From: Gymnodinialimonas phycosphaerae | Lineage (GTDB): Bacteria; Pseudomonadota; Alphaproteobacteria; Rhodobacterales; Rhodobacteraceae | Reading direction: 5' to 3' | DNA: 64,000 bases | Assembly (NCBI RefSeq): GCF_019195455.1 | Contig: NZ_JAIMBW010000001.1 | Span: 682,001-746,000 of the forward strand | Notes under the pieces: model-generated | Database searches by the model: none | What the model was told of the DNA's origin: nothing | What the model saw: only the letters and a program-made list of their open reading frames with translations | Part shown: positions 30,606-49,962 of the stretch, in pieces | Layout: every line of letters begins with the position of its first letter | Numbering within the stretch: the stretch's first letter is position 1 | Made by a program: the position numbers and the translations under genes

Positions 30606-30977
30606 CGGGCCTTTTTGCACAAATGGAATGAGGGGATTCATCTCGCGAGTACAGCATGATAGCTGGTAGCCATGAGCAGTTGGACCCGTACGAGTACAAG
30701 ACGACGAATTGGTCGTCCTACAATGCTAGCCTGAAGCAGCACGGATCGTTGTCGATTTGGTTTGATCCTGAAATGATCTGGATGCCAGTGCCGACAGGCA
30801 AACGTGGTCGGCAGCAGCAGTTCGGCGATGCTGCGATCCAAACCTGTCTGAGCTTGAAGCTGCCGTTCGGGCTACCGCTGCGGCAGACGACTGGCTTCGT
30901 GGAAATCTTACTGTAATTGGTCGGCCTGGATTGGGCTGCGCCTGATTTCAGTACGCTGTGCCGTCCATTGTCCGGCG

Positions 30978-30994
30978 ACACATGCTACATGTGT
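30978..30994. repeat. Short palindrome inside insertion in IS5 remnant
   Basis: ACACATG-CTA-CATGTGT is a perfect inverted repeat inside a stretch of roughly 36-39 extra bases that interrupts the transposase between FSTL and KKLNV while keeping the reading frame. It may be a small palindromic insertion element. Confidence 0.5.
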
Positions 30995-31092
30995 GAGAGG
31001 GGCCCGAAGAAACTGAATGTCAGTCGTCCATATAGAGGTGGAACCGGCCCGCTTAATCTTCTCATCGACAGCTCCGGTATCAAGGTTGAGGG

Positions 31093-31133
31093 GGAAGGCG
31101 CCCTCTCGGCAACATGCCTTGCATGCGCCTTCC
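31093..31133. repeat. Second palindromic insertion in IS5 remnant
   Basis: GGAAGGCGC (31093-31101) and GCGCCTTCC (31125-31133) form a nine-base perfect inverted repeat. It lies in an insertion of about 45-48 bases that splits the expected transposase segment EGEWNARKHGG. Together with the repeat at 30978 it suggests two separate palindromic insertions in one dead gene. Confidence 0.5.
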
Positions 31134-31293
31134 GGGTAGTTAATGAAACGCCCGCAAACATGGCGGCTCGAAGCGGCGCATTTGGCGCAAGATACATACG
31201 GGGATCGACGAAGAAACGCTGGAGGTTCAGGCTGTCGAAGTCACGACCAGCAATGTCGACCTGTCCCGTTTTTATGCCGTCCTTAGCGCTCGT

Positions 31294-31362
31294 TTAAGCC
31301 ACCTTCCGTTCGAAGGCGACAGGGCTTTTCCAGCCCGAATGTCTTTGAATCCCTATCTTCCC
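31294..31362 (-). mobile_element. C-terminal scrap of an IS3-family transposase
   Basis: The minus strand reads GIQRHSGWKSPVAFERKVA followed by TAA at 31296-31294. This closely resembles the usual C-terminus of IS3-family OrfB transposases (HSxLGWKSPxxFE). Nothing else of the element is recognisable upstream on that strand. It adjoins the IS5 remnant and shows that this spot has been hit by more than one insertion sequence. Confidence 0.6.
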
Positions 31363-31739: not shown

Positions 31740-31994
31740 TCAGCGCTTCAGGAAGCTTTCTTTGGACGCGCCGATGCGCAGGTCCGAGCCGTCCTGGAAC
31801 GACTTGCCGCCTTTGCCCTTGCTGTCATTTTCCGTGTACCCCTTCACGTCGTGCTCTTTCATGATGCCACCCCGCAGTGGCGTCCCGCCCTTGTGCGCGC
31901 CATCCGCAGCCGTGTAGCCGCCTTGGACGCCGTCCAGTTCATCGTCGGTCAACTCGACCTTGCTGTTCTCGGTGGTCTTTTTCATGTCACTCAT
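31740..31994 (-). CDS. Double-glycine leader peptide precursor 1 (NHLP-exported peptide candidate)
   Basis: This 84-residue protein has a clean TAGGAGAT Shine-Dalgarno. Its leader ends VELTDDELDGVQGG at residue 26, the same pattern as the three peptide genes at 40291-41038. Cleavage after GG by the C39 peptidase would release about 58 residues starting YTAADGAHKGG, rich in Gly, Lys and charged residues and with no Cys. It lies 86 bases downstream of the methyltransferase gene on the same strand, so the two are probably one operon. I recognise no mature-peptide family. It lacks the IVAQ(A/S)GD tail found in precursors 2 and 3. Confidence 0.8.
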   Translation of the reverse strand: MSDMKKTTENSKVELTDDELDGVQGGYTAADGAHKGGTPLRGGIMKEHDVKGYTENDSKGKGGKSFQDGSDLRIGASKESFLKR

Positions 31995-32080
31995 AGCAAT
32001 CTCCTAACTAAATGGTATCTTTCAAAGGCTGTATCTTGCGGGCGAAACGTTATGCAGGCCGGTCGCACGCATCAATACTT

Positions 32081-33574
32081 TTAACGCGCCGCCCGCGGTT
32101 CCGGGAGGGAGGAATTCCTTACCGCAACGCCCAATCGGATCATGCGGCGGCGGACTTCCTGGCTGATCTCGGCGGCGGAAATCGCCGTTTCTGGGTCATC
32201 CAGATCGGCATCCGATGCAAGGTATCGCGCGCGGATCACCGGTTCCGAGGCGGCGGCAGACAGGATGTCTGCGGGTGACGTTGCATGCAAGGCAACCTCG
32301 ATGGCGCGCGCGTCCATTGGCCCATGGGCTCCGGCCAAGGCAAGGATATCGGGGCCTTGCGGCGTCAGCGCGCTATTCGCCAGTCGCGTGTTAAGCGCTT
32401 CGGCGACCTCCGTCGCAGCGGGTGGTGCCGCAGGTCTCACAAGGCGCGCGATCAGCAGGCAGTCGACCGCGTTGCGGATATCGGGTAGCCCAAGACCAAG
32501 ATCCTCGGCCAAGCGATCCAGCCGCGCGGGGCCGCTTTGCAGCGCTGTCACGACGCCGCGCGCGGCGGGATTGTCAAAGCGGATCGTGCCCGCAGGCCCG
32601 CGCACCATCAGCTCAACATCCGCGTCACAATGGGCAACGAGCCACGTGGTATCGAATGCCTCGGGCGCTTCGTGCTGCGGGTCCTTGCCGTAAAGGTCGA
32701 TGCGAAACCGGGTGTTTCGGATCACGTCCACAAGGCTATCGCGATAAATGTCATCCTCAACCTCTTCCAGCGCGGCCCGTTGACCGGACCTGAGGGTCAG
32801 GTCCGGGCGCGTGCGGTCCATGATGGCCTGGCCTAGGTAAGTCAGCCCCCGCGCGGCCATCTGTGCTTTGACGTCAGCGCTCCAGAGCGGCTGCCACGCG
32901 TCGTTGAGGTATTCGTGGGGAAAATAGTCGGGCGGCATTTGCGCGAACGTTTCTTCGACGCGATCCGCTACGTCTGCGCCGAGGCCCGGCAAATTCAGCT
33001 CTGCCATCGCGCGGACCTGATCATGGGCGGCACGAAAGCGTTCAAACCCACTGCCGTCCTTGCTGCGCGCCAAATTATACACCGTGTGCTGGTAGATAAG
33101 ATCGTCGGTCCATCCCGGCAGTGCGTTGTAGCTGATTGCGCAAATGCCACCGGGGGCGGTGCGCTGCGCCGCCAGATCCATCGCTTGGCCGCGGACAAGC
33201 GGCGGCACCCAGGCGATCACCCCATGCATCGTGACGAAATCGCAGGGCGGGCCCTGCTGCGCCAGCGCCTCGTCAAACAGGGCGTGGGTCAGGTCCAGGT
33301 TGTCCAACCCGGCCCCGAAGGCGCGTCCCCGCGCAATGTGCTCGGCCATTCCGTCAAGCCCCTCGAACCGTGCTTCCGGGTGGCTGGCCGCCGTAAGCGC
33401 CAATCCAAGCCCGTCGCCGCAACCGATATCCAGCATTCGGAAGGCGCGGCAAAGGTCGGGGGCGGCCCATCCGTGCCGCCGCGCCATGGCGGAAAGATTG
33501 GCGGGGGTCAGACGTTCATGAAACAGGCTGGGGTAGGCGGTTTCAGAGAAGTATCCATCAAGCTCATTTGACAT
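32081..33574 (-). CDS. SAM-dependent methyltransferase with methyltransferase regulatory domain (protein-lysine-methyltransferase-like)
   Basis: This is a 497-residue protein. Residues 40-160 form a class I methyltransferase domain with the SAM loop MLDIGCGDGLG at 47-57. About 210-300 correspond to the methyltransferase regulatory domain, and the Ala-rich C-terminal 150 residues look like a winged helix. I recall this layout from rickettsial protein-lysine methyltransferases (PKMT1/2) that act on outer-membrane protein OmpB. Here it stands between a double-glycine peptide gene (downstream, same strand) and the divergent export operon. A role in methylating the peptides or their exporter is an inference; it could also serve an unrelated target. 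Confidence 0.75.
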   Translation of the reverse strand: MSNELDGYFSETAYPSLFHERLTPANLSAMARRHGWAAPDLCRAFRMLDIGCGDGLGLALTAASHPEARFEGLDGMAEHIARGRAFGAGLDNLDLTHALFDEALAQQGPPCDFVTMHGVIAWVPPLVRGQAMDLAAQRTAPGGICAISYNALPGWTDDLIYQHTVYNLARSKDGSGFERFRAAHDQVRAMAELNLPGLGADVADRVEETFAQMPPDYFPHEYLNDAWQPLWSADVKAQMAARGLTYLGQAIMDRTRPDLTLRSGQRAALEEVEDDIYRDSLVDVIRNTRFRIDLYGKDPQHEAPEAFDTTWLVAHCDADVELMVRGPAGTIRFDNPAARGVVTALQSGPARLDRLAEDLGLGLPDIRNAVDCLLIARLVRPAAPPAATEVAEALNTRLANSALTPQGPDILALAGAHGPMDARAIEVALHATSPADILSAAASEPVIRARYLASDADLDDPETAISAAEISQEVRRRMIRLGVAVRNSSLPEPRAAR

Positions 33575-33682
33575 TGTCGCGATCCGCCTGCGCTGTCATG
33601 GTTCGGCTGTTGCACCACCGAAGGGGCCCGCTCGATTACGTTGGTTGCAACCGGTACCGCTCTGCGGGCCGCAACAACGCGC

Positions 33683-33719
33683 CGTTACCTATTGTGATGT
33701 AACGCCTTTTGTTTACACT
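33683..33719 (+). promoter_or_regulatory. Promoter and operator candidate of the peptide-export operon
   Basis: TTGTGA (33692-33697) and TACACT (33714-33719) are spaced 16 bases apart and each match the sigma-70 consensus in four of six positions. An inverted repeat CGTTAC...GTAACG (33683-33704) overlaps the -35 box. The 171-base spacer also serves the divergent methyltransferase gene, so one regulator could control both sides. Confidence 0.45.
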
Positions 33720-33745
33720 CCCCTCCATTGTTTGAGGAGATTTAG

Positions 33746-35023
33746 GTGGCGCGCAAGATTTTTCGCCAAGCTGCGCTGGAACGGATGGCCAGCCCGGAAC
33801 GACTGGATCGGCCGGTGCGACTGGTTGGGGCGTCGGGTTGGTTGGTCCTTCTGTGCCTTGCGTCACTGATCGGTGCGGGCGTGTTTTGGGCGGGCGTGAC
33901 AATGGCCCCGATCAAGGTGCGGGGCGAAGGGATCCTGATCGATGAGGCGGGGCTGGTGGAACTCGTCTCGGAACAGGGCGGATTGCTGCAATCCATCGAC
34001 ATCGCGCCTGGGGATTTGATCGAGGAAGGGCAAGTGGTCGCCCGCCTGTCCCGCTCGGAACTGCGCCGCGAACTGGCGGGTGCTCAGGCGCTTCTGGCGG
34101 ATCAGCAGGAACGCTACAGCCAGCTTCTTGCGGCCCAGGACGCGCGGTTGGCGCGCGAGACCAGCGCAGATGCCCGCAGTCTGGCCGCGTTGGAGCGGAC
34201 CTTGGAAGCCCTGCGCGCACGTCTTCCGGTCCTGCAAGAACTGGCGCTGGAGCTTGTGCCCCTGGCCGAGCGCAACGTGGTCCCCCAAAGCCGTCTGCTT
34301 GAAGCGCAGATCGCGGTGGCGGATTTGGAAGAGCGGATATCCAACCTGGTGGAGGACGCGCAGGATATCGAGTTTCAGGCCAGCGAACGGGAGGCCACGC
34401 GCGAATTCGAATTGCTCGAAGAACGCCTGGCGATTGATGAACGGGTCCGCGTGATTGCCCGCCTGGAGGCGCAATTGTCCGAAGAGCGTGTGATCGTTTC
34501 CCCCTACACAGGCCGTGTGGTCGAATTGCAGGTGAACGCGGGCGACGTGCTGCCCCTGGGCGGCACCCTGGCCACGTTGACCCAAACCGGAGAGGGGCGC
34601 GCCTTGGTGGCGCTGATGTTCGTGCCACCGGAAGAGGGCAAACGGATCGAGCCCGGCATGTTGGCCGAGATCGCGCCCACAACGGTCGAACGTGAGGTTT
34701 TCGGGCATATCCACGGCGAGGTGATTGCCGTCTCGGAACTTCCGGCAACGCCGGAGGGCATGCGCCGGGTCTTGCAGAATGATCAACTGGTTCAGCAGCT
34801 TTCGCTGGAAGGCGCGCCGATCGAAGTGCGCATCCGCCTGTTGCCTGATGCGGACACGGAAACGGGGTTTGCGTGGTCGGCCTCGGACGGGCCGGTGTCG
34901 GGGGTGAATGCCGGTACGCTTCTGGGCGGGCAGATCGTGCTGGAGGAACGCCCGATCATCGATCTCGTGATCCCCGGGGCCTCCGTGCGGTTGGCGCGGC
35001 TTCTTGAGGACGCGACCCCCTGA
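33746..35023 (+). CDS. NHLP-type bacteriocin/RiPP secretion protein, HlyD family
   Basis: The 425-residue protein starts at GTG after GAGGAG. The N-terminus contains FRQAALERMASPERLDRPVRL, very like the start of NHLP/NHLM system HlyD proteins. One transmembrane helix follows at about 31-54, then a long coiled coil (about 105-245), a lipoyl/barrel-sandwich segment (SPYTGRVVELQVNAGDVL) and a C-terminal beta domain. It would link the inner-membrane ABC exporter to the periplasm or an outer-membrane channel. The stop overlaps the next ATG (TGATG). No TolC-like gene is nearby. Confidence 0.85.
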   Translation: MARKIFRQAALERMASPERLDRPVRLVGASGWLVLLCLASLIGAGVFWAGVTMAPIKVRGEGILIDEAGLVELVSEQGGLLQSIDIAPGDLIEEGQVVARLSRSELRRELAGAQALLADQQERYSQLLAAQDARLARETSADARSLAALERTLEALRARLPVLQELALELVPLAERNVVPQSRLLEAQIAVADLEERISNLVEDAQDIEFQASEREATREFELLEERLAIDERVRVIARLEAQLSEERVIVSPYTGRVVELQVNAGDVLPLGGTLATLTQTGEGRALVALMFVPPEEGKRIEPGMLAEIAPTTVEREVFGHIHGEVIAVSELPATPEGMRRVLQNDQLVQQLSLEGAPIEVRIRLLPDADTETGFAWSASDGPVSGVNAGTLLGGQIVLEERPIIDLVIPGASVRLARLLEDATP

Positions 35024-37170
35024 TGTTTGGGGCGACGGGCCGGGCGCGCACCCAAAGCGTCTTGCAGCTTGAGGCCGCTGAATGCGGCGCGGCGTCCCTG
35101 GCCATGGTGCTGGGGTATTTCGGCCGCTTTGCGCCTTTGGATGAGTTGCGGACGCTGTGCGGCGTGTCGCGCGACGGGGCCAAGGCATCGTCGCTTCTGA
35201 AGGCCGCGCGCAGCTTCGGCTTGACCGCCAAGGGCCTCAAGGCTGAGCCGGAGGCGCTGCGCACGATGAAGGGCCCAATGATCGCCTTCGTGAATTTCAA
35301 CCACTTCCTTGTGGTCGAAGGTGTGCGGCGCAACCGGGTCTACATCAACGACCCCGCCTCGGGCCGCCGGGTCGAAACGCTGTCCGAGTTTTCGGACAGT
35401 TTCACCGGCGTGGTCCTGACGTTTGCCAAGGGCGAGGGCTTCAAGCGCGGCGACACGCGTCCGGCCCTGATCCCGTCGCTCCTACGCCGGATGCGCGGCT
35501 TTGGCGGCGCGCTGTTCTTTGCGTTCCTTGTGTCCCTGGCCCTTGTGGTGCCGGGCATTCTGGTGCCGTTTTTCTCGCAGATCTTTGTCGATTACATCCT
35601 CGTGCGGTCGTTGGAGGATTGGTTGGTGCCCTTGCTGATCGGCATGGGGCTGACGGCGGTGGCCCGCTTCATCCTGATCCAGCTTCAGGGCATGACGCTT
35701 CTGCGATTGGGCGAGGCGATGACGCTTAGGAATGGGCAAGACCTGTTCCAACACATGATGCGCCTGCCGATTGCCTTTTTCGAGCAACGCTTTTCCGGCG
35801 AGATCGCGGATCGTGTGCGCCTTAACGAAGACCTCGTGTCGCTTCTGACGGCGCAACTGACAGGCGCCGCCCTCAACGTCATCACGGCGACGCTGTTTCT
35901 GGTGGCGATGCTGACCTATCACCCGATGATCACCCTGGGGGTGGCGGGGTTGGCGGCGCTGAACGTGGTCATTCTGGCGGTCTCGACCCGCCTCATGTCC
36001 GAGAGGTTTCGCAAGATCTCGATCGAAAGCGGCAAGCTGACCGGGGCCAAGGTTGCGGGCCTCAAGGATATGGAGACGTTCAAGGCCTCGGGCGCGGAGG
36101 ACATGCTTTACACGCGCTGGACCGGGCTGTTGGCCAATCTAACCAATGGCACCCAGGCCGCCGCGCGCGCGTCTGCGTGGCTTTCGCCGCTTCCGGGGCT
36201 CGTCTCGATTATCATCGGGATTTTTGTGCTGATCGCGGGCGGTTACGCGGTGATGCAGGGGCAATTGACCTTGGGCGAGTTGGTTGCCCTGCAATCACTG
36301 GCTGCGTCCTTTGCCGCACCTGTCACGGGCCTTGCAGGCTTCGGGGCCGAGTTGCAGCAAGTCCGCTCCTTCACACAGCGCCTTGATGACATCATGGAGC
36401 AAGACCTTGATCCCGGATTTGCCGCTGACAGGCCGGTGCGGGCGGATGCAGTCCCCTCGGGCTCGGTGCAGTTGCGCGATGTGTCCTTCGGATACAGCCC
36501 GTTGGAAGCGCCTTTGCTGGACGGTTTGAACCTGTCGATGCACCCGGGGCAACGGGTGGCCTTGGTCGGGACCAGCGGGTCAGGCAAATCGACGCTGGGC
36601 AAGCTGATCACCGGCATGGCCTATCCCAGCGCCGGCACGGTCGAGATCGGCGGGCGGCCCCATGCCGGTTGGACCCGTGAGGCCTTGGCCGCGCGCCTGG
36701 CTTACGTCCGCCAGGATGTGGTGATGTTCAAAGGCACGGTGCGCGAAAACCTGACGTTGTGGGATGACACGATCCCGGAAACCGACCTGGTGCGCGCCGC
36801 CCATGATGCGCAGATCCACGCCACCATCGCGCAGCGCCCGGGCGGCTATGACGCCGAAATGACAGAGGGCGGCAAGAACTTCTCGGGCGGGGAACGGCAG
36901 CGGCTGGAGATTGCGCGCGCCTTGGCGACGAACCCGTCCGTCATCGTGTTGGACGAGGCGACTTCGGCGCTGGACGCCATGACCGAGCACCGGGTGATGG
37001 AGGCGATCCGGCGGCGCGGCACCACCGCTATTGTCATCGCCCACCGCCTGTCCGCGATCCGCGATTGTGACGAGATTATCGTCCTTGATCAGGGTCAGAT
37101 CGCCGAGCAGGGGCGCCACCAGGACCTGATGGCTGCCCGGGGCCTCTACGCCCATTTGATCGAGGCATAG
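35023..37170 (+). CDS. NHLP family peptide exporter: C39 peptidase / permease / ATPase
   Basis: This is a 715-residue transporter of the bacteriocin-processing type. The N-terminal C39 peptidase is complete: Gln15, Cys21 (AAECGAAS), His94 (NFNHFLVV) and Asp110 (YINDPASG). It should cut double-glycine leaders such as those at 31740-31994 and 40291-41038. A six-helix ABC exporter domain covers about 165-430. The ATPase has Walker A GTSGSGKST near 516, signature FSGGERQRLEIARAL near 624 and Walker B VIVLDEATSALD. It is the central component of the cluster and is co-translated with the HlyD protein. Confidence 0.9.
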   Translation: MFGATGRARTQSVLQLEAAECGAASLAMVLGYFGRFAPLDELRTLCGVSRDGAKASSLLKAARSFGLTAKGLKAEPEALRTMKGPMIAFVNFNHFLVVEGVRRNRVYINDPASGRRVETLSEFSDSFTGVVLTFAKGEGFKRGDTRPALIPSLLRRMRGFGGALFFAFLVSLALVVPGILVPFFSQIFVDYILVRSLEDWLVPLLIGMGLTAVARFILIQLQGMTLLRLGEAMTLRNGQDLFQHMMRLPIAFFEQRFSGEIADRVRLNEDLVSLLTAQLTGAALNVITATLFLVAMLTYHPMITLGVAGLAALNVVILAVSTRLMSERFRKISIESGKLTGAKVAGLKDMETFKASGAEDMLYTRWTGLLANLTNGTQAAARASAWLSPLPGLVSIIIGIFVLIAGGYAVMQGQLTLGELVALQSLAASFAAPVTGLAGFGAELQQVRSFTQRLDDIMEQDLDPGFAADRPVRADAVPSGSVQLRDVSFGYSPLEAPLLDGLNLSMHPGQRVALVGTSGSGKSTLGKLITGMAYPSAGTVEIGGRPHAGWTREALAARLAYVRQDVVMFKGTVRENLTLWDDTIPETDLVRAAHDAQIHATIAQRPGGYDAEMTEGGKNFSGGERQRLEIARALATNPSVIVLDEATSALDAMTEHRVMEAIRRRGTTAIVIAHRLSAIRDCDEIIVLDQGQIAEQGRHQDLMAARGLYAHLIEA

Positions 37171-37172
37171 GG

Positions 37173-39794
37173 ATGATGGATTTTCCCAACTCCACTGCGA
37201 ACACTCTCTCCCCCCTGACGGTGGACCGGGGCGCGCCGATCGTGCTGCCCATTGGGTCCATCGCCTGGGTAATCGAGGCCGGAGAGGTCGAGGTATATGT
37301 CGTTGGGGACACGGGGCGCGATTTTCTGGCCGAGTTATCGGTTGGCGACGGGCTGCTGGCGATGCGCGGCCCGGAAGATGTGCATTTGCAGATCGTGGCC
37401 ACCGAACCCGCGCGCCTGACCTCCCTTGACCAAAATGACCCTGCATTCAGCGCCGTGGCGCAGCAGTGGCTGGATCGCCTGACGGCTTTGATGCCCGGCC
37501 CGGACGCCACCGATCTGGACGCCGCCGCCTCGGACACCGCCGACCCGGACACCGCAGACTTGGAAACCTCAGACCTGGACGCCGTCGATATCGTGGACCC
37601 GTTCGAGGCGACCGAGGCGGCCATTGCGGCGCTGGCGCAAGACTACGCACAGGGCCGGGAAGGGGAGGACGCACGCCTCGTGTCGCGCCTGTCCCGCGGC
37701 ACGGCCGACGACGATGTGCCCGCCAACCGCACGGCGGCAGCGCTGGGTGCCATCGCGCAATCGCTGGGGGTGCCGATGGAGGCGGGCAGCCTGGCCGCGT
37801 TGCGTGCCGACGGGCAGGTGCCGTCCCTGTGCCGCCGCGCGGGACTGCGCGCGCGCGCCGTCGTGCTAGAGGCTGGATGGCACAAGCGCGACCAAGGCCC
37901 GCTCTTGATTCGCCGCAGCGACACGTCCCACGCGCCCGCCACGCCCGGGGGGGGCGAGGCCCTGATTTGGGACGGTCGCCGCTACCGTGACCCGGACGGC
38001 GTGCGCCTGAGCGCGCGCGCGGCGGAGGATGTCGACCACGTGGCCTACACCGTCTCGGCCCCGCTGCCCGAGGACGTCTTGGGCTTCTGGTCCCTCGCGC
38101 GCTACGTGCTGCGCACCAGCAACCGGCGCGACGGCATGGTGGCGGCCTTCGCGGCGCTGATCATGGCGGGGCTCGGTGTCCTGACGCCGCTGGCCATCGT
38201 CTGGCTTTTGTCCGACATCGTGCCTGCGGGCATGGTGGGGCTCTTGTTTGGCGTGGCCGTCGCCCTCGGCGTGGCGGCGCTGTTTTCCACGCTGCTCAGC
38301 ACCGCGCAAAGTCTGGCCGTCACCCGCCTTGGCGGGGCAGGGGCCGTGGCGCTGGATTCAGCGGTGACGGACCGTCTGCTGAGGCTGCCAACGAGCTTCT
38401 TCAAGGGCTACGCGCCGGGCGACCTGAACCAACGCATCGGCCACCTGCAACAGATGCGCGGCCTTGTGATCTCCATCGCGTTCAGCGCTGTGCTGACGAC
38501 CGTCCTGTCGCTGGTCTATCTGGCCGTCCTGCTGACGTATGATCCGCAATTGGCGCTGATCGGGGTTGGCCTTGTGGCCGTCTATATCGTCGCCGTGGCC
38601 ATCGCGCGGGTGTTGCAGATGGGGCCGCTGCGCGAAGCGGCAGCGCTGGATGGCGATATCTCGGCGCTGACCTATGAAACGCTGGACGGGGTCGCCAAGC
38701 TGCGCGCCTCTGCCGCCGAGGATCGCGCCATTGCTCGCTGGTTGGATGTCTATGCCAAGGAACGCGCGGTGCAGATCAAGGCCGGCAAGATCGGGGTGGG
38801 ATTTGGCGCGTTCTCGGACGCGTATCAGACCATCACCTTGATGATCCTCTTCGCGGGGGCTGGCGCCTTGGCGGCAGCGGACGCCCCGGCGGGTGTCTTC
38901 ATCGGCTTTCTGGCCGCCTTCGGGGCGTTCCAGGGGGCTTTCATCGGCCTGTCGTCGGCGCTGCTGGAGATCTACGCAGCCCAACCCCTGATGGACCGTG
39001 CACGCCCCATCCTTGAGGCCGCCCCCGAGGTCGCGTTGGGGCGCAAGGACCCCGGTGTCCTGCGCGGCGAACTGGAGGCCTCGGGCCTGACCTTCGCCTA
39101 CCAGCCGGGAAGTGCGCCGGTGCTGAACCGCTTGGATTTCAAGGTCAAACCCGGTCAGCACATGGCCGTTGTCGGCGCATCTGGGTCCGGTAAATCGACA
39201 CTTCTGCGCCTGTTGCTGGGGTTCGAATCCCCCCAGACCGGCACCATCCTTTACGATGGGCAGGAACTCAGCCACCTCGACCTGACCCGCGTGCGCGGCC
39301 AGATCGGCGTGGTGCTGCAAGCCTCCGAGTTGTTCGCGGGGTCGATCCTCGACAACATTCGCGGGGCTTCGGACACGGATCTTGAAGACTGCCTGCGCGC
39401 CGCCGATCAGGCCGGGCTGTCGCGGGATCTGGAATACTTCGCCATGGGCATCCACACGCCGATCACCGAAGGCGCCAGCACGCTGTCGGGCGGGCAGCGC
39501 CAGCGCATCCTGATCGCGCGGGCCTTGGCGGCCAAGCCCAACATCCTGTTCTTTGACGAGGCGACCTCGGCGCTGGATAACGCCACGCAGGCCGTCGTGT
39601 CAGAAACGCTCGATCGGCTTCAGGTCACGCGCATCACCATCGCGCATCGCCTGTCCACCGTGCGCCACGCGGACCAGATCTGCGTGTTGGAAGACGGGAA
39701 ATTCGTCGAACAGGGGCGGTTTGACGATCTCATGGCCCAGAACGGGCGCTTCGCTGACTTGGCGCGACGGCAATTGACGGAAGAGGACGTGTGA
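37173..39794 (+). CDS. NHLP family exporter, second permease/ATPase subunit
   Basis: The 873 residues comprise an N-terminal cupin-like domain (about 1-100; IAWVIEAGEVEVYVV), a strongly acidic linker (about 108-150) of five-residue repeats, and a degenerate C39-like region (about 150-290) without catalytic Cys. An exporter membrane domain (about 310-600) and an ATPase with Walker A GASGSGKST near 668, signature [15 protein letters not shown] near 770 and Walker B ILFFDEATSALD follow. This is the layout of the second ABC protein of NHLM bacteriocin systems, thought to pair with the peptidase-bearing subunit. It overlaps the next gene by one base. Confidence 0.85.
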   Translation: MMDFPNSTANTLSPLTVDRGAPIVLPIGSIAWVIEAGEVEVYVVGDTGRDFLAELSVGDGLLAMRGPEDVHLQIVATEPARLTSLDQNDPAFSAVAQQWLDRLTALMPGPDATDLDAAASDTADPDTADLETSDLDAVDIVDPFEATEAAIAALAQDYAQGREGEDARLVSRLSRGTADDDVPANRTAAALGAIAQSLGVPMEAGSLAALRADGQVPSLCRRAGLRARAVVLEAGWHKRDQGPLLIRRSDTSHAPATPGGGEALIWDGRRYRDPDGVRLSARAAEDVDHVAYTVSAPLPEDVLGFWSLARYVLRTSNRRDGMVAAFAALIMAGLGVLTPLAIVWLLSDIVPAGMVGLLFGVAVALGVAALFSTLLSTAQSLAVTRLGGAGAVALDSAVTDRLLRLPTSFFKGYAPGDLNQRIGHLQQMRGLVISIAFSAVLTTVLSLVYLAVLLTYDPQLALIGVGLVAVYIVAVAIARVLQMGPLREAAALDGDISALTYETLDGVAKLRASAAEDRAIARWLDVYAKERAVQIKAGKIGVGFGAFSDAYQTITLMILFAGAGALAAADAPAGVFIGFLAAFGAFQGAFIGLSSALLEIYAAQPLMDRARPILEAAPEVALGRKDPGVLRGELEASGLTFAYQPGSAPVLNRLDFKVKPGQHMAVVGASGSGKSTLLRLLLGFESPQTGTILYDGQELSHLDLTRVRGQIGVVLQASELFAGSILDNIRGASDTDLEDCLRAADQAGLSRDLEYFAMGIHTPITEGASTLSGGQRQRILIARALAAKPNILFFDEATSALDNATQAVVSETLDRLQVTRITIAHRLSTVRHADQICVLEDGKFVEQGRFDDLMAQNGRFADLARRQLTEEDV
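37509..37602 (+). repeat. 15-base tandem repeat encoding acidic pentads
   Basis: About six imperfect copies of a 15-base unit run through the linker of the second NHLP exporter subunit, encoding pentads such as ATDLD, AAASD, TADPD, TADLE, TSDLD and AVDIV. Copies differ mainly at third positions, so the repeat is old rather than freshly expanded, but its length could vary between strains. Confidence 0.6.
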
Positions 39795-40294
39795 TGCGCA
39801 AGGGGTTGATTATCTTGGGCGATCTGAAGGATCAGGACCTGATCTGGCTGTCGCAGAACGGCACGCTGCGGCGGCTCTCGGCAGGCGACCGTCTGATCAC
39901 GGAGGGGGAGCAGGTGAGCGATCTGTTCATCATCACCGAAGGCGGCTGCGACGTCACGGTGCAGGGGGCCCGCGTCGCGCAGCTTGGCGTCGGCGATATC
40001 ATGGGCGAGATGTCGTTCGTGGAAAAGGCGGGCGCCAGCGCCACGATCACGGTGGCGGAGGCCTCGCGCGTTCTGGCCGTCCCGCAAAAGGCGCTACTGG
40101 CGCAGTTTCGCGATGACGAAGGCTTTGCCGCCCGCTTCTACCGCGCGTTGGCGGTGTTCCTGTCGGATCGCTTGCGGTCCATGGCACCGGGTGCGGACGC
40201 GGACGAGCTGGACGAGGGCCTGTTGGACACGCTGCATGTCGCAGGCGACCGGATGCTACGCTTGATCAGCCTGTTGGAAGGGCAGCAGCGCTAG
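39794..40294 (+). CDS. Cyclic-nucleotide-binding-fold protein of the export operon
   Basis: This 166-residue single-domain protein matches the CAP-type ligand fold: an RLSAGDRLITEGEQVSDLFIITEG segment, then GDIMGEMSFVEKAGASATITV. The conserved Glu of the phosphate-binding cassette is present (GEMSF), but the Arg that contacts the cyclic phosphate in CAP is replaced (GASATI), and there is no DNA-binding domain. It may bind another ligand or have a structural role. The ATG at 39794 overlaps the upstream stop; a GTG one codon earlier is possible. Its TAG shares CTAG with the convergent peptide gene at 40291. Confidence 0.8.
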   Translation: MRKGLIILGDLKDQDLIWLSQNGTLRRLSAGDRLITEGEQVSDLFIITEGGCDVTVQGARVAQLGVGDIMGEMSFVEKAGASATITVAEASRVLAVPQKALLAQFRDDEGFAARFYRALAVFLSDRLRSMAPGADADELDEGLLDTLHVAGDRMLRLISLLEGQQR

Positions 40295-40521
40295 ATTTCG
40301 TTATCGCCCGCTTGGGCCACGATGTTCTTCTCGGTCTCGCCGATGTAGGGCTTCCGGCCATCGCGCGACAGGATCATGCCTTTGCGATCCACGCTCCGGC
40401 GCAGTTTCATGGACTCCCCCGCGATATCGCCGATCTTGAGGTAGCCGCCGGTGACGGAGTCGAGCTCTTCCGCCGTGAGGTCTTCGACCTGTGGCTTTGC
40501 GGGTTTCGTGGTGTCGGTCAT
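40291..40521 (-). CDS. Double-glycine leader peptide precursor 2
   Basis: This 76-residue precursor has a TAGGAGAT Shine-Dalgarno. The leader ends VEDLTAEELDSVTGG at residue 26. The predicted mature 50 residues begin YLKIGDIAGESMKL, are rich in Lys, Arg, Asp and Glu, contain no Cys, and end NIVAQAGDNEI. That tail nearly repeats the end of precursor 3 (RIVAQSGDGSI). It lies on the minus strand, convergent with and overlapping the export operon by four bases. The mature peptide family is unknown to me; it is not Cys/Ser/Thr-rich as a lanthipeptide would be. Confidence 0.8.
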   Translation of the reverse strand: MTDTTKPAKPQVEDLTAEELDSVTGGYLKIGDIAGESMKLRRSVDRKGMILSRDGRKPYIGETEKNIVAQAGDNEI

Positions 40522-40579
40522 GGGATATCTCCTATGGTCACTGAGAGGGGATTTCGCCGTCAGCGCAACAAGCGCCGCG

Positions 40580-40774
40580 CTAGATGCTGCCGTCGCCCGA
40601 TTGGGCCACGATGCGCTTGTCGCGCGGGGCGCGCTTCACCGCGTCCGCCTCGTCAAACTGCAAGACGGCCTTGCTGTCCCGCGCGGCTTGCACGGCGGGC
40701 AGCAGAAGGCCACCGCCCTGAACGCCATCAAGGTCCGTGTCGGTCAGGTCGTTGGTTTCGGGTTTATCGGTCAT
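40580..40774 (-). CDS. Double-glycine leader peptide precursor 3
   Basis: This is a 64-residue precursor with AAAGGAT upstream of the ATG. The leader ends NDLTDTDLDGVQGG at residue 21. The predicted mature 43 residues start GLLLPAVQAARDSKAVL, which could form an amphipathic helix, and end KRIVAQSGDGSI, matching precursor 2's tail. No Cys is present. It stands 58 bases upstream of precursor 2 on the same strand, so it is likely co-transcribed with it. Confidence 0.8.
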   Translation of the reverse strand: MTDKPETNDLTDTDLDGVQGGGLLLPAVQAARDSKAVLQFDEADAVKRAPRDKRIVAQSGDGSI

Positions 40775-40849
40775 GGCATCGATCCTTTAAATAAAGCCCA
40801 ACCGCGCCACCCGAAAATCGAATGGCGCGCGTGGTGTGATCGCCTGCGA

Positions 40850-41038
40850 TCAATTCTCCATCGTGATCTTGAGATAACCGTCGCCATCGCGCTGTTGCTT
40901 CAGGCCTTTGCCGTCGGCGCCTTTCAAGTGGGCTTCGCCCGAGTCCTTGCGAACGGTCCATTCGATTTTCTCATAGCCGCCCTGAACGTCGTCCAGATCT
41001 GCGTCGGTGAGAGTTTCGGTTTTCGCTTTGTCAGTCAT
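40850..41038 (-). CDS. Double-glycine leader peptide precursor 4
   Basis: This is a 62-residue precursor with GAAGGA upstream of the ATG. The leader ends ETLTDADLDDVQGG at residue 21. The predicted mature 41 residues begin YEKIEWTVRKDSGEAH and end GDGYLKITMEN, alternating charged and hydrophobic residues in a way that suggests beta strands. It lacks the IVAQ tail of precursors 2 and 3 but shares their leader almost residue for residue. As the first of three tandem peptide genes, it probably has the common promoter, in the 41039-41289 spacer. Confidence 0.8.
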   Translation of the reverse strand: MTDKAKTETLTDADLDDVQGGYEKIEWTVRKDSGEAHLKGADGKGLKQQRDGDGYLKITMEN

Positions 41039-41289
41039 TTAAAAGTCCTTCAGTCTTCAATTTCGATGAACATACAAAGCTACAATACTCCATTTCGCGC
41101 AACGAAGGGAGTCCGGTCTTGACAATGAAACGAATCTGATACTCAGGGACGCAATCCGCGCCTGGCGGCGTGCTTGTGGCCATTGTCCGCCGCTCTCTTC
41201 TCTTGATCCCGGGTGTCGTCTGGCATCCGGCACTGGCGTGGGGCTTACGGGGTTTGCAAAGCGCACAAGATTTGGTCATCTTGTGCGAT

Positions 41290-42420
41290 ATGGAAATCCT
41301 GAGTGTCAGTCACAGCGGCTTTTTGGTTGCGATGTCCTGTGTCGTGGCGCTTGTGGCGGGATTCACAGGCCTGTCGCTGACGCGCGACCTCTCGAAAAAG
41401 CCGCTGTTCCAGAAGAAGGCGTCGATCGCGCTGGCGGCGGTGGCCCTTGGGGGCGGCATCTGGGCGATGCATTTCGTCGCCATGTTGGGGCTGAAGATGC
41501 CAATCCCATTCTATTATGACGCGGCGATCACGCTGGTCTCGGCGCTTTGTGCGATCTTGCTGGTGGGGGCGGCCCTGATCTTGCTGCATTTTACCGAGCG
41601 CACGCCTGTGATGATTGCGGCAGCGGGGGCGATCGTTGGGGTGGGCGTCCTGGTGATGCACTACATCGGGATGGCGGGATTGGAGATGTGCCGCGCCACC
41701 TACACGGTGCCGGGGGTCGTCTTCTCGTCGGTCGTGGCGATCGGGCTGTGCATGCTGGCGTTCTGGATCGCCTACGGACAGCGGACCAAACGCAATATCG
41801 TGCTGGGGACGATCTGCTTTGCGATTGCGGTGTGCTCGGTGCATTTTCTGGCGGTGTCGGGCACCCGTTTCGTTGCAGAGCCAAGCGTGGCCGAGTTCGG
41901 CCCCGCCATGAGCAATGAGACGCTGGCGCTTGGGGTGATCTTCTTCAGCTTTGTGATCTTCGGGGCCTGCCTTTGGGTCAGCGTAACGTATCTGGTCCCC
42001 GCTGAGGCCGCGTCCCGCGCGCCCGAAAACCAGCCCACAGCCGCCGCGGTGCCCAATGCGCGCGGCCATGGCCTTCAAATCCCTTGCGAGCGGGATGGCG
42101 CCAAGGTTTTCATCCGCTCCGACGATGTTCTCTTCGTGCGGGCCGATGGCCATTACACACAGATCTACACCGGGTCCGAGCGGTTGTTTTGCGCGTGGCC
42201 CGTGACCGAGGCGTGCAAGCGCCTTCTGCCTGTCGGGTTCTTGCAGACGCACCGCAGCTATCTGGTCAATCCGGCCCGCGTCTCGCGGTTCGAGAGGACC
42301 AAGGACAAGGGGCGGTGCATCTTCGAGGGCGACGGCATGCCGCCCGCCCCGGTCAGCCGCTCCAAGCTGAAGCTGATCCAAGATGCGCTGACACTACAGG
42401 CCGGCGCAATTGGTGCGTGA
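41290..42420 (+). CDS. coxC: MHYT-domain membrane sensor with LytTR DNA-binding domain (CoxC-like)
   Basis: The 376-residue protein has seven predicted helices in residues 10-235 with three MHYT-type motifs: MHF at 60-62, MHY at 123-125 and VHF at 184-186. A LytTR domain follows at about 265-365 (DDVLFVRADGHYTQIYT and FLQTHRSYLVNP). CoxC and CoxH of Afipia (Oligotropha) carboxidovorans have this same architecture, and coxMSL follows 117 bases downstream, so a CO- or redox-responsive role on the cox genes is likely. MHYT His/Met residues are thought to bind copper or gas-sensing metal. The ATG at 41290 lacks a strong Shine-Dalgarno, so the start is uncertain. It also borders the peptide genes. 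Confidence 0.8.
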   Translation: MEILSVSHSGFLVAMSCVVALVAGFTGLSLTRDLSKKPLFQKKASIALAAVALGGGIWAMHFVAMLGLKMPIPFYYDAAITLVSALCAILLVGAALILLHFTERTPVMIAAAGAIVGVGVLVMHYIGMAGLEMCRATYTVPGVVFSSVVAIGLCMLAFWIAYGQRTKRNIVLGTICFAIAVCSVHFLAVSGTRFVAEPSVAEFGPAMSNETLALGVIFFSFVIFGACLWVSVTYLVPAEAASRAPENQPTAAAVPNARGHGLQIPCERDGAKVFIRSDDVLFVRADGHYTQIYTGSERLFCAWPVTEACKRLLPVGFLQTHRSYLVNPARVSRFERTKDKGRCIFEGDGMPPAPVSRSKLKLIQDALTLQAGAIGA

Positions 42421-42537
42421 GCGGGCGCATTTCGTGCAAAAGAGCAGTATTTCATTGATTTTCTAGTGCCCTCGCATGCCTTGGTATGCAGCTTCTCCTT
42501 CAAGCCAGAACATTCGCTTCAAGGGAGGAGAAAGCCG
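42421..42537 (+). promoter_or_regulatory. coxM promoter region with imperfect palindrome
   Basis: An inverted repeat GCATGCC-TT-GGTATGC with one mismatch lies at 42474-42489. CATTTCGTGCAA (42428-42439) resembles CATTTCGCGCAA in the spacer before coxC (41091-41102). These are candidate sites for the LytTR regulator. GGGAGGAG precedes the coxM ATG. Confidence 0.4.
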
Positions 42538-43392
42538 ATGATTCCAGCGGCATTTGACTATTATCGCCCCAAGGACATGGACGGCGTGCTGTCTATTCTT
42601 GAAGAACACGGAGACGATGCGCGCGTCATGGCGGGGGGGCACAGCCTGATCCCGATGATGAAGTTGCGCATGGCCGACGTGCCGCATCTGATCGATCTTC
42701 AGGATGTGGGCGGCATGTCCGATATCGAGATCGGCGGCGACGCGATTTCGATCGGCGCCATGGTCACCCAGGCGGACATCATCGACCACGGCCCCCTGGC
42801 CGAGGCGGCGCCGATCCTGCGTGAGGCGGCCTTGCAGATCGCCGATCCCCAGGTGCGCTACATGGGCACCGTCGGCGGCAATGTCGCCAATGGCGACCCC
42901 GGCAACGACATGCCCGGCCTGATGCAGTGCCTGGATGCGGTGTTCACCGTCGTCGGGCGCGGTGGTCCCCGCGATATCCCGGCTCGGGACTTCTACGAGG
43001 CGGCCTACATGACCGCCCGCGAGGACGACGAAGTTCTGACCAAGGTCACGCTTCCGATGCCAAGGGGCGGCTACGCCTACGAGAAGCAGAAGCGCAAGAT
43101 TGGTGATTATGCCACTGCCGCCGCCGCCGTGCAGATCGTCAAGGAAGGTGACACCTGCGCCTCGGCAGCGATCGCGATGACCAACCTCAGCGACACGCCG
43201 ATCTATTCCGAAGCGGCCGGTGCTGCGCTGGTCGGCACCTCGCTGGACGATGCAGCCCTCAAGGCGGCTCTGGCAGCGATGTTGGGCGACATCGACCCGA
43301 CCGAGGACAACCGCGGCCCCGTCGCATTCAAGAACCATGTGGCGGGCGTCATTCTGCGCCGCGCCATCGAGCGCGCCTGGTCGCGGGCGTAA
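42538..43392 (+). CDS. coxM: Aerobic CO dehydrogenase medium (FAD) subunit
   Basis: This is a 284-residue flavoprotein of the xanthine dehydrogenase FAD-subunit family. The FAD-binding motifs [11 protein letters not shown] (about 33-43) and [14 protein letters not shown] (about 111-124) are both present. Start at 42538 after GGGAGGAG. It carries electrons from the iron-sulfur subunit to the respiratory chain. The M-S-L gene order is that of form I (true) CO dehydrogenases. The gene ends 13 bases before coxS. Confidence 0.92.
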
Positions 43393-43405
43393 GGGAGGAA
43401 AGCAG

Positions 43406-43900
43406 ATGCCAAAAAAGATGCACATCACGTTGAAGGTGAACGGCAAAGAGGAAGAGTTCCTGGCCGAGCCGCGCGAACTGTTGATCTACACCCTGCGCGA
43501 GCGGCTCAACATCACCGGGCCGCACATTGGCTGCGAGACGTCCCATTGCGGGGCCTGCACGGTCACGATCGACGGCAAGTCGGTGAAGTCCTGCACCATG
43601 TTCGCCGTCCAGGCCGAAGGGGCCGAGATCACGACGATCGAAGGGATCGGGGGGCCGGACGATCTGCATCCCTTGCAGACCGCTTTCAAGGAACACCATG
43701 GCCTGCAATGCGGCTACTGCACGCCGGGCATGATCACGCGGGCCACCAAGTTGTTGGAGGAAATCCCCAACCCCACGGAAGAGGAAATCCGCTTCGGGAT
43801 GGCCGGCAACCTCTGCCGCTGCACCGGCTACCAGAACATCGTGAAAAGCATTCAGGCCGCCGCGGCTGAAATGTCAGCTGCAAAGGAGGCTGCGGAATGA
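43406..43900 (+). CDS. coxS: Aerobic CO dehydrogenase small (2Fe-2S) subunit
   Basis: The 164-residue protein has all eight cluster Cys residues: Cys43, 48, 51 and 63 (plant-type ferredoxin cluster, [10 protein letters not shown]) and Cys102, 105, 137 and 139 (CGYCTPGM and CRCTGY). It passes electrons from the Mo-Cu site of CoxL to FAD in CoxM. The upstream AUG is preceded by GGGAGGAAA. It overlaps coxL by four bases (ATGA). Confidence 0.93.
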
Positions 43901-46323: not shown

Positions 46324-46332
46324 AGGCTTCGA

Positions 46333-46380
46333 ATTTCGCTTCGCGAAATCCGACCACGCGGGGGAGGCGCTGCCTCCCCC
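46333..46380 (+). repeat. Two tandem hairpins between coxL and coxD
   Basis: ATTTCGC-TTC-GCGAAAT (46333-46349) is followed by GGGGGAGGC-GCT-GCCTCCCCC (46360-46380) and then by GGACCCCCTCCGGAG and TTTTT. The second stem is very stable. Similar GC-hairpins followed by a CCGGAG-TTTTT tail are, as I recall, frequent between Rhodobacteraceae genes. They probably protect the coxMSL mRNA or attenuate coxD. Confidence 0.6.
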
Positions 46381-46429
46381 GGACCCCCTCCGGAGTTTTT
46401 CTGGCAAGATGAAAGGGACAAGAGCGTCA

Positions 46430-47305
46430 ATGACCTATCGCGCATTGCAGGAAGATATGGCGGCCTGTGGGTATGTTGCCTCGGACGATCTGGCCGTGGC
46501 CTTGCAACTGGCGCTGTCGCTGGGGCGGCCGTTGTTATTGGAAGGGGCGGCGGGCGTTGGCAAGACCGAGGTCGCGCGCACGCTGGCCACGGTCAAGGAC
46601 ACCGCGCTGATCCGGTTGCAGTGCTATGAGGGGCTGGACGCGGCACAGGCGATTTACGAATGGAACTACCAGCGCCAATTGTTGACGATCCGCGCGGCTT
46701 CCGAGGCTGGAGAAACGGGTAAAACCGTGGAAGAGCGCATTTTTTCACGGGAATTCCTGTTGGAACGTCCGCTGTTGGCGGCGATTACGCAGGACGTCGC
46801 ACCCGTTCTTCTTATAGATGAAATTGATCGCGCGGACGAGGAGTTCGAGGCCTACCTTCTGGAAATCCTGTCGGATTTTCAGATTTCCATTCCTGAGCTT
46901 GGCACCATCACGGCCACCACCCGGCCGATTGTGATCCTGACCTCCAATGGCACAAGGGATCTGTCTGACGCCCTGCGCCGCCGGTGCCTGTATACCTACG
47001 TTGAATATCCCGATCGTGCGACGGAGCTGGCGATCCTCAGGGCGCGCTGCCCAGAGGTCGAGGCAAGGCTCGCCGATCAGATCGTGGGGTTCGTGCAAAA
47101 GCTGCGCGAGGAAGAGTTGGAGAAGACGCCGGGTGTGGCCGAGATGCTTGACTTCGCGGCGGCGCTGATGGGGCTTGGCATTGCGGACCTGACCGATGAT
47201 CCGGCTATTTTGCAATCCACGCTCACCACGCTCTTGAAGACCCAAAGCGACCAGGCGCAGATCACGTCCGAGGTTGCGGGCCGCATTGCGGGCAAGGCGG
47301 CATGA
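46430..47305 (+). CDS. coxD: CO dehydrogenase maturation AAA+ ATPase (MoxR-like)
   Basis: This is a 291-residue MoxR-type AAA+ protein. Walker A EGAAGVGKT is near 38-46, Walker B VLLIDEIDRAD near 125-135, a sensor-1 Asn in VILTSNGTRDLSDALRRRC, and arginine fingers follow. In A. carboxidovorans CoxD is needed to insert copper and sulfur into the CoxL active site. The start is uncertain between the ATG at 46430 (used) and one seven codons upstream at 46409. It overlaps coxE by four bases, as is usual for MoxR-VWA pairs. Confidence 0.9.
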   Translation: MTYRALQEDMAACGYVASDDLAVALQLALSLGRPLLLEGAAGVGKTEVARTLATVKDTALIRLQCYEGLDAAQAIYEWNYQRQLLTIRAASEAGETGKTVEERIFSREFLLERPLLAAITQDVAPVLLIDEIDRADEEFEAYLLEILSDFQISIPELGTITATTRPIVILTSNGTRDLSDALRRRCLYTYVEYPDRATELAILRARCPEVEARLADQIVGFVQKLREEELEKTPGVAEMLDFAAALMGLGIADLTDDPAILQSTLTTLLKTQSDQAQITSEVAGRIAGKAA

Positions 47306-49854: not shown

Positions 49855-49962
49855 CGCTCAGACGCCTCGCAAGTCGTTGGCGCCGAAAAGCGGCGCTTAC
49901 CCCCGCGCAGGCCGAAATCCTGGCCTCGATCAAATTTCCCTGTTGCTAAGAAGGACATCGCA

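What the first reader, a model, noticed from the sequence alone, without database searches (positions are those of the whole stretch)
31740..41038. NHLP-type export system with four short double-glycine peptides and a PKMT-like methyltransferase
Seen: HlyD-like protein, an intact C39 peptidase-ABC transporter (Cys21/His94/Asp110), a second NHLP-type ABC subunit and a cyclic-nucleotide-fold protein in one operon. Four small genes around it share an almost identical leader, LTDxDLDxVQGG. The only tailoring candidate is a class I methyltransferase with a regulatory domain as in rickettsial protein-lysine methyltransferases; no lanthipeptide, YcaO or radical SAM enzyme is seen, and the cargoes have no Cys. 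Established: NHLM/NHLP systems usually carry nitrile-hydratase-like or Nif11 leaders of 60 or more residues and dedicated modifying enzymes. Inference: a distinct subclass exporting Lys-rich, possibly methylated, short peptides, perhaps antimicrobial or signalling.
Basis: partly seen in the sequence, partly recalled or inferred. Interest (0 to 1): 0.88.

Follow-up and report, generated by a model that had tools for sequence, protein, structure and literature searches.

The report
Peptide exporter with lysine-rich short peptides
A bacterial gene island encodes a machine that probably cuts and secretes at least seven small lysine-rich peptides, next to an enzyme of a kind known to put methyl groups on lysines of surface proteins, a pairing that would be a new way of decorating secreted peptides if the enzyme acts on them.

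Summary
[quoted passage not shown] New here: three more precursors lie at two other places in the chromosome, so at least seven may feed one exporter; their cores hold 10.2% Lys (median window ORF 2.5%), no Cys, and several repeat a K-G-hydrophobic module; exporter, methyltransferase and precursors were found in this genome and in none of 12 congeners. The methyltransferase was beside none of 40 other exporters, and I accepted no short-leader peptide beside 25 other relatives of it. Cleavage and export are likely; lysine methylation of the peptides is plausible but rests on one locus; killing is weakly supported (I see no immunity gene; cores are hydrophilic). A new variant of a known kind.

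The parts
31740..31994 (-). precursor P4, 84 aa; leader 26 residues ending ELTDDELDGVQGG; core 58 residues with 8 Lys; 86 bases downstream of the methyltransferase gene on the same strand
32081..33574 (-). class I methyltransferase with MethyTransf_Reg domain, OM PKMT family; AdoMet-contact residues D74 and H117 kept
   Evidence: PF10119 67.6 bits (cut-off 25.5); PKMT1/PKMT2 best matches in PDB, E 2e-17 and 3.1e-16; residue roles from PMC11784438
33746..35023 (+). HlyD-like periplasmic adaptor of the NHLP exporter
   Evidence: TIGR03794 over cut-off
35023..37170 (+). C39 peptidase / permease / ATPase (NHLP ABC1), Cys21 His94 Asp110 present
   Evidence: TIGR03796 over cut-off; of 122 matches in the genome it is the only one that covers the C39 domain
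37173..39794 (+). second permease/ATPase (NHLP ABC2)
   Evidence: TIGR03797 687.1 bits, cut-off 709.4
39791..40294 (+). cyclic-nucleotide-fold transport-associated protein
   Evidence: PF00027 over cut-off; TIGR03896 below cut-off
40291..40521 (-). precursor P3, 76 aa; leader ends DLTAEELDSVTGG; core 50 residues with 5 Lys; shares the KG module and the IVAQxGxxxI end with P5
40580..40774 (-). precursor P2, 64 aa; leader ends DLTDTDLDGVQGG; core 43 residues with 3 Lys
40850..41038 (-). precursor P1, 62 aa; leader ends TLTDADLDDVQGG; core 41 residues with 6 Lys; first gene of the P1-P2-P3 run

Best explanation
This is a horizontally gained (or elsewhere lost) island for export of a small-peptide family. 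The C39 domain of the transporter recognises the leader helix through Leu-12, Leu-7 and Val-4, cuts after GG (GA in two trans-encoded members), and the ABC pair with HlyD, plus an outer-membrane channel presumably encoded elsewhere, exports the 41-58 residue cores. At least seven precursors at three chromosomal places feed one exporter. Before export the OM PKMT-family enzyme, encoded next to precursor P4, most likely methylates Lys residues of the cores, which are Lys-rich and in several members repeat a K-G-hydrophobic module. The product is then a mixture of hydrophilic, methylated, multi-module peptides acting outside the cell, more likely in signalling or surface interaction than in killing. 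Shown by sequence: gene content, leader motif, family membership, shared occurrence. Inferred: cleavage, export, methylation, role.
For: Exporter families TIGR03794 and TIGR03796 over cut-off. The leader matches motif 2 of NHLP leaders (ELSDEQLDAVAGG, PMC2887384 Table 3) and the positions that LahT150 recognises (PMC6363468 passages). Strict leader pattern: 4 in the window, 3 in the two trans loci, 0 in 447 kb of control DNA. The precursor family was found only in this genome: 1 of 13 in the genus, 1 of 394 in the family sample, 1 of 385 in the class sample, at E 0.01, 1e-6 and 1e-5. C39-ABC family 0 of 12 congeners; methyltransferase 1 of 13 in the genus, this genome. It is the only C39-bearing match among 122 ABC matches in the genome. 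Core Lys 10.2% against a median of 2.5% over 53 window ORFs picked by length and GC3. P3 and P5 share a module (46% over 37 residues). MT: PKMT1/2 are its nearest solved relatives, with both AdoMet-contact residues kept. A known OM PKMT (KmtA) methylates many Lys of an exported adhesin (PMC11784438 abstract).
Against: The MT-exporter pairing was seen once: 0 of 40 other exporter neighbourhoods hold an MT match; PF10119 is in 5 of 30 exporter genomes and, outside this genome, on other contigs (draft assemblies) or 0.8-1 Mb away. I accepted no short-leader peptide near 25 other MT relatives; one scan hit was judged chance. Several of those relatives sit beside large RTX, two-partner-secretion or Hcp-repeat proteins, which suggests that large proteins are the usual substrates. 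The second ABC subunit misses its cut-off. The core of P2 has only 7% Lys. The protein-database search failed at every try, so close homologues outside the sampled genomes are unknown.
Confidence: 0.5

Rival explanations
1. The exporter and peptides are as described, but the methyltransferase modifies another substrate (a large surface or secreted protein) or was carried along in the island; the peptides leave the cell unmodified, like class II microcins.
For: MT not linked to any of 40 other NHLP exporters. Of nine large ORFs that I chose by eye beside eight MT relatives, six have RTX repeats, two have Hcp domains (one of these also RTX), one a TPS secretion domain and one is a ShlB-type transporter. 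KmtA and rickettsial PKMTs act on large outer-membrane proteins (PMC11784438).
Against: MT lies between P4 and the exporter, on the strand of P4, 86 bases from it. MT, exporter and precursors are all missing from 12 congeners. It is the only PF10119 match in this genome. The cores are about four times richer in Lys than the median window ORF.
Confidence: 0.38
2. The peptides are antimicrobial (class II microcin-like) and the island is a bacteriocin cluster.
For: Double-glycine leaders with a C39 transporter are typical of bacteriocins; weak leader-only matches to bacteriocin models; NCBIfam names this exporter family 'bacteriocin export'.
Against: I see no room for an immunity gene: 31740-41038 is filled by the nine named genes. 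Cores are hydrophilic, GRAVY -0.23 to -1.27, without Cys. No bacteriocin model passes its cut-off. Three members lie at two other places without an exporter match nearby.
Confidence: 0.2
3. The peptides carry other modifications put on by enzymes encoded elsewhere in the genome, as happens with Nif11/NHLP RiPPs whose precursors lie far from the enzymes.
For: Precursors in trans are known for NHLP systems (PMC2887384, passages); three precursors here are in trans.
Against: Cores have no Cys and modest Ser/Thr, 8.8% and 4.0%; no LanM, YcaO or radical SAM match among the ten proteins scanned. The rest of the genome was not searched for such enzymes.
Confidence: 0.1

Closest known systems
NHLP/Nif11 (proteusin-type) export systems, TIGR03794/TIGR03796/TIGR03797 (Haft, Basu and Mitchell 2010)
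   Same: same three-gene exporter, same 13-residue cleavage motif, precursors partly encoded in trans, conserved leader with variable cores
   Different: no nitrile-hydratase or Nif11 leader domain (leaders 21-26 residues against averages of 83 and 70), no LanM/YcaO/radical SAM match in the cluster, cores 41-58 residues and Lys-rich without Cys, an OM PKMT-family gene instead
Cyanobacterial double-glycine bacteriocin clusters (Wang, Fewer and Sivonen 2011)
   Same: C39 ABC transporter plus HlyD and, in some groups, a second ABC subunit, with double-glycine precursors many of which lie outside the NHLP/Nif11 families
   Different: accessory domains named in the passages read are rotamase, S8 and M16 peptidases and LanM; the word methyltransferase does not occur in its main text
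Outer-membrane protein lysine methyltransferases (rickettsial PKMT1/2; Acinetobacter KmtA)
   Same: PF10119 domain, similarity over residues 9-294, both AdoMet-contact residues kept
   Different: 497 residues with no sequence match beyond residue 294 in the PDB search; residues at the L103 and I130 positions differ, as reported for KmtA; neighbour is a peptide exporter, not a large adhesin
Class II microcins / double-glycine bacteriocins
   Same: short leader L-12, D/E-8, L-7, V-4, G-2, G-1 and a C39 exporter
   Different: no immunity gene seen, hydrophilic cores, exporter with two ABC subunits, several cores with repeated modules

Membership tests
NHLP-type export system | HlyD-like adaptor over TIGR03794 cut-off | tested here: met
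   285.9 against 156.2 bits
NHLP-type export system | C39 peptidase-ABC over TIGR03796 cut-off | tested here: met
   917.9 against 853.3 bits
NHLP-type export system | second ABC subunit over TIGR03797 cut-off | tested here: inconclusive
   687.1 against 709.4 bits over the whole model; best-scoring family by far, adjacent in the operon
NHLP or Nif11 RiPP precursors | long nitrile-hydratase-like or Nif11-like leader domain (TIGR03793 / TIGR03798) | tested here: not met
   leaders are 21-26 residues; best TIGR03793 match 11.8 bits against 50.9; no TIGR03793 or TIGR03798 match for P5-P7 at E 0.1
NHLP or Nif11 RiPP precursors | cleavage motif 2 before the core | tested here: met
   xL(T/S)xx(D/E)Lxx(V/A)xG(G/A) in 7 of 7 precursors; motif from PMC2887384 Table 3
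NHLP or Nif11 RiPP precursors | cognate LanM, YcaO or radical SAM enzyme in the cluster | tested here: not met
   Pfam and NCBIfam on the ten cluster and flank proteins; the rest of the genome was not searched
OM protein lysine methyltransferase | PF10119 regulatory domain behind a class I methyltransferase domain | tested here: met
   67.6 against 25.5 bits; Methyltransf_12 31.5 against 30
OM protein lysine methyltransferase | Asp and His that bind AdoMet in PKMT1 (D102, H146) | tested here: met
   D74 and H117 align to them, taking the chain numbering as one higher than the protein's; residue roles read in PMC11784438
OM protein lysine methyltransferase | middle and C-terminal domains of PKMT1 | tested here: inconclusive
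   sequence match ends at residue 294; the single-sequence structure model is too poor to use, pLDDT 38.9
OM protein lysine methyltransferase | methylates Lys of an exported protein | not testable with these tools
   needs mass spectrometry or an enzyme assay
class II microcin / double-glycine bacteriocin | bacteriocin model over cut-off, or immunity gene in the cluster | tested here: not met
   all bacteriocin model matches below cut-off; I see no further gene in 31740-41038
class II microcin / double-glycine bacteriocin | kills related bacteria | not testable with these tools
   needs an inhibition assay

The most novel reading that the evidence does not exclude
A new kind of ribosomal peptide system: one NHLP-type exporter serves a dispersed family of at least seven short-leader precursors, several of whose cores are strings of a Lys-Gly-hydrophobic module, and an OM PKMT-family enzyme methylates the repeated lysines before export, so that multi-lysine methylation, known from surface adhesins, becomes the sole tailoring step of a secreted peptide family.
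Probability: 0.33. Interest if true: 0.72.

Novelty: new variant of a known kind. Interest (0 to 1): 0.5.

Why it matters
If the methyltransferase acts on the peptides, it would be a small-peptide substrate for an enzyme family otherwise known (from the papers read) for large outer-membrane proteins, and a minimal tailoring route in which only lysine methylation is added. The seven paralogues with one exporter give a tractable system to ask what multi-lysine methylation does to an exported peptide. The short-leader clade of NHLP exporters suggests that the 13-residue cleavage motif suffices for this exporter type, so genome mining that looks only for long leaders will miss cargo.

Tried and rejected
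Protein-database homologue searches for the methyltransferase and two precursors failed by time-out every time. The single genome-contig scan with the C39-ABC protein gave one match, to the ATPase part only. Plasmid searches with P3 and P5 found nothing; a phage search with the methyltransferase found nothing. A viral-contig scan with the precursor alignment was not possible because no stretch was conserved enough.

The MHYT-LytTR gene 41266-42420 was considered as the island's regulator and rejected: it is 81% identical in congener G011 (a match in 2 of 13 genomes of the genus, this one included), which lacks exporter, precursors and methyltransferase, and colinearity with G011 through the carbon monoxide dehydrogenase-type genes starts at window 41253. 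It more likely belongs to the cox cluster (recalled: CoxC/CoxH are MHYT-LytTR proteins). G011 is only a one-sided control: the 36 kb fetched showed no match to the left flank of the island.

A resemblance of the P3 core start (YLKIGDIAGES) to Hcp-type tube proteins (recalled) was tested after Hcp-like repeats appeared beside two methyltransferase relatives. A profile of 12 such repeats gave P3 2.7 bits, reached by 6 of 300 shuffles, with seven cores searched; not significant.

Structure models were of no use: methyltransferase alone pLDDT 38.9, P3 with four sequences pLDDT 50.9 with only the leader helix formed; no fold search was run. Promoter scan: 0 sigma-70-like sites against 1.9 expected; terminator-like sites 14 against 9.8 (sd 3.5). 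PADLOC matches to TIR/cyclic-nucleotide and MADS models look like shared ATPase, methyltransferase and cNMP folds and were not followed. A reversed-DNA control of the looser leader scan gave 0, but reversal also destroys Shine-Dalgarno sites, so I do not lean on it.
Full report
WHAT IS THERE. The window is G000:C1:682001-746000 of a 4.32 Mb two-contig genome. From left to right the island holds precursor P4 (31740-31994, minus), a methyltransferase (32081-33574, minus), HlyD (33746-35023, plus), C39-ABC (35023-37170, plus), a second ABC subunit (37173-39794, plus), a cyclic-nucleotide-fold protein (39791-40294, plus), and precursors P3, P2 and P1 (40291-40521, 40580-40774, 40850-41038, all minus). 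Family models: TIGR03794 285.9 bits (cut-off 156.2), TIGR03796 917.9 (853.3), TIGR03797 687.1 (709.4, just missed), TIGR03896 110.4 (161.05, missed), PF10119 67.6 (25.5). The C39 residues Cys21, His94 and Asp110 are at those positions in the translation.

ARE THE SMALL GENES REAL? Each of the four has a Shine-Dalgarno-like sequence and third-position GC of 0.67-0.83. A strict leader pattern with start codon and Shine-Dalgarno finds exactly these four in the window and none in 447 kb of control DNA (33 loci: 25 methyltransferase neighbourhoods, two pieces of congener G011, six ABC-transporter loci of the same genome). A looser pattern gave one more window match, inside a thiamine-diphosphate enzyme gene at 17273-18994, and one match in control locus L102; both I take as chance.

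THREE MORE PRECURSORS. A profile of the four precursors, searched in the whole genome at E up to 10, found three more: P5 (L092:8514-8759, plus) and P6 (L092:8800-9039, plus) side by side, and P7 (L093:8462-8671, minus); a profile of all seven found no eighth in this genome at E 0.01. Neither place has an exporter or methyltransferase match within the 18 kb fetched. P5 and P6 end their leader in GA instead of GG. P5 and P6 repeat KG(I/V)(V/I)(L/M)SSE-type modules, P7 holds GRTGVVDHKADD twice, and P3 shares the module and the ending IVAQxGxxxI with P5 (46% over 37 residues). So leaders are conserved and cores vary, with a common module in some; P1, P2 and P4 show it weakly or not at all.

LEADER AND CLEAVAGE. 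The leader fits L-12, D/E-8, L-7, V-4 (A in P7), G-2, G/A-1. Haft et al. 2010 (PMC2887384; passages and Table 3 read) give motif 2 of NHLP leaders as ELSDEQLDAVAGG and of Nif11 leaders as ELSDEELEAVAGG; here it is mostly (E/D)LTDx(D/E)LDxVQGG. Their mean GG positions are 83 and 70; here 21-26. The LahT150 study (PMC6363468; [quoted passage not shown] A PDB profile search with the seven precursors had one match, at E 0.25 and so not significant, to the same motif in an NHLP leader (8tb1). The C39-ABC protein is the only one of 122 genome matches that covers the C39 domain, so it is the only candidate found for all seven.

CO-OCCURRENCE. The C39-ABC family is in 0 of 12 congeners at E 1e-150, the precursors in 1 of 13 genomes of the genus (E 0.01), 1 of 394 of a family sample (E 1e-6) and 1 of 385 of a class sample (E 1e-5), always only this genome, and the methyltransferase in 1 of 13 of the genus at E 1e-10. 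The family and class searches scored at most 14 candidates per genome and would miss short-leader peptides with unrelated cores, such as those of L020. Exporter relatives (E 1e-150 or 1e-130) are in 5 of 394 family and 26 of 385 class genomes including this one, the others at 37-48% identity. Congener G011 keeps the DNA to the right of the island from window 41253 on, which marks the right edge; a split transposase lies left of P4. The left edge is not defined. No call names the host; a Rhodobacterales-type marine alphaproteobacterium is my guess.

OTHER EXPORTERS OF THIS KIND. I examined 40 other exporter neighbourhoods: 4 of 4 other family places, 29 of 32 other class places (one place in G564 and two in G661 not taken) and 7 of 19 plasmid hits. 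Some are cut short by contig ends. Methyltransferase matches: 0 of 40. From the scan I accept short-leader cargo at 7 of 40 (L018, L020, L057, L061, L062, L080, L081) and long NHLP/Nif11-type leaders at 8 of 40 (L060, L063, L064, L074, L076, L079, L083, L084); I discarded short hits that were internal starts of long leaders (L060, L064, L083), one inside the ABC subunit (L051) and one of two in L057; the L081 case is the weakest. L019 has a 916-residue ORF with a short leader seen by eye and missed by the scan. L057 and L061 come from one genus and are not independent. In a tree of 41 C39-ABC proteins this one sits, on a long branch (0.92), in a 10-row clade (95/98) with six other short-leader rows, one long-leader row and two without label; the short label needs 3 changes, as few in 6 of 500 shuffles. 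So short-leader cargo, from precursors of 67 to over 1000 residues, recurs in this exporter lineage and is not peculiar to the window.

THE METHYLTRANSFERASE. Its nearest solved relatives are rickettsial PKMT1 (5dnk, E 2e-17) and PKMT2 (5doo, E 3.1e-16), over residues 9-294. Inoue et al. 2024 (PMC11784438; abstract and two sections read; passages) name Asp102 and His146 of PKMT1 as critical for AdoMet; they align to D74 and H117 here, if the chain numbering is one higher than the protein's. The positions of L103 and I130, which they find not conserved in KmtA, hold Gly and Phe here. They report that KmtA methylates over 130 lysines of an exported adhesin without a clear consensus, and that Rhodobacterales sequences appeared only in the KmtA cluster. 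The seven cores hold 10.2% Lys against 2.2% in seven large window proteins and a median of 2.5% (maximum 9.3%) over 53 window ORFs picked by length and GC3, not all of them certain genes.

EVIDENCE AGAINST THE METHYLATION STEP. PF10119 is in 5 of 30 exporter genomes, and outside this one it lies on other contigs of draft assemblies or 0.8-1 Mb away. Among 295 family genomes 18, this one included, have a methyltransferase match at E 1e-10. In 25 neighbourhoods of relatives (18 fetched from the family, 7 from exporter genomes) I accept no short-leader peptide; one hit in L143 inside a 242-residue frame I take as chance; ABC-transporter matches in eight of them were not examined further, and none had a HlyD match. 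The 22 plasmid records with a methyltransferase match were not examined. Nine large ORFs beside eight relatives, chosen by eye because they looked secreted, were checked: RTX repeats in six, Hcp domains in two of which one also has RTX, a TPS domain in one, a ShlB transporter in one. The usual substrates may thus be large secreted proteins, and the pairing with a peptide exporter is a single case.

FUNCTION. I see no space for an immunity gene, the cores are hydrophilic (GRAVY -0.23 to -1.27) and no bacteriocin model passes its cut-off. I therefore put signalling or surface interaction above killing, as inference.

LITERATURE. Wang et al. 2011 (PMC3140520; passages read) report 290 cyanobacterial precursors of 28-164 residues near such clusters, 121 of them NHLP or Nif11. 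Two searches that could have shown a lysine methyltransferase acting on RiPPs or double-glycine peptides showed none in their listings, and one for NHLP bacteriocins with Alphaproteobacteria had no hit; one for double-glycine leaders with Alphaproteobacteria and C39 listed two papers that I did not open. Other listings were used only to choose papers. All cover only the open-licence library. One further paper was looked at: PMC6959600 (Legionella NHLP-type T1SS; three passages).

VERDICT. A real, coherent export island with a seven-member short-leader precursor family; a new variant of the NHLP export theme. The methyltransferase link is the interesting and unproven part.

Noticed in passing
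window 30656-31297: Two neighbouring reading frames match consecutive parts of one transposase domain (DDE_Tnp_1_5), a broken insertion element just left of P4; described only.
   Followed up: partly
L092:8514-9039 and L093:8462-8671: Three further precursors of the same family in two other chromosomal places with no exporter match nearby; cores made of short repeats.
   Followed up: yes
L144:8856-13100 and L145:3394-7773: Beside two relatives of the methyltransferase lie large proteins in which a profile built from their own Hcp domains finds six Hcp-like units each; the L144 one also has RTX repeats. Hcp-fold repeats in such proteins next to a lysine methyltransferase look unusual.
   Followed up: partly
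window 40291-40521: The core of P3 begins YLKIGDIAGES, like the first strand of Hcp proteins (recalled); profile test not significant, 6 of 300 shuffles as good.
   Followed up: yes
window 41266-50418: MHYT-LytTR regulator followed by carbon monoxide dehydrogenase-type genes (FAD-binding, molybdopterin, CoxG), colinear with congener G011.
   Followed up: partly
L020:1201-3774: Four short-leader precursors of 91-194 residues beside an NHLP-type exporter in another member of the family; one has EF-hand matches below cut-off.
   Followed up: no
L018:3023-6199 and L019:5485-8235: ORFs of 1058 and 916 residues with a short double-glycine leader beside NHLP-type exporters; very large cargo if real.
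   Followed up: no
window 32081-33574: The methyltransferase and the HlyD protein are poor in Lys, 0.6% and 0.7%.
   Followed up: no
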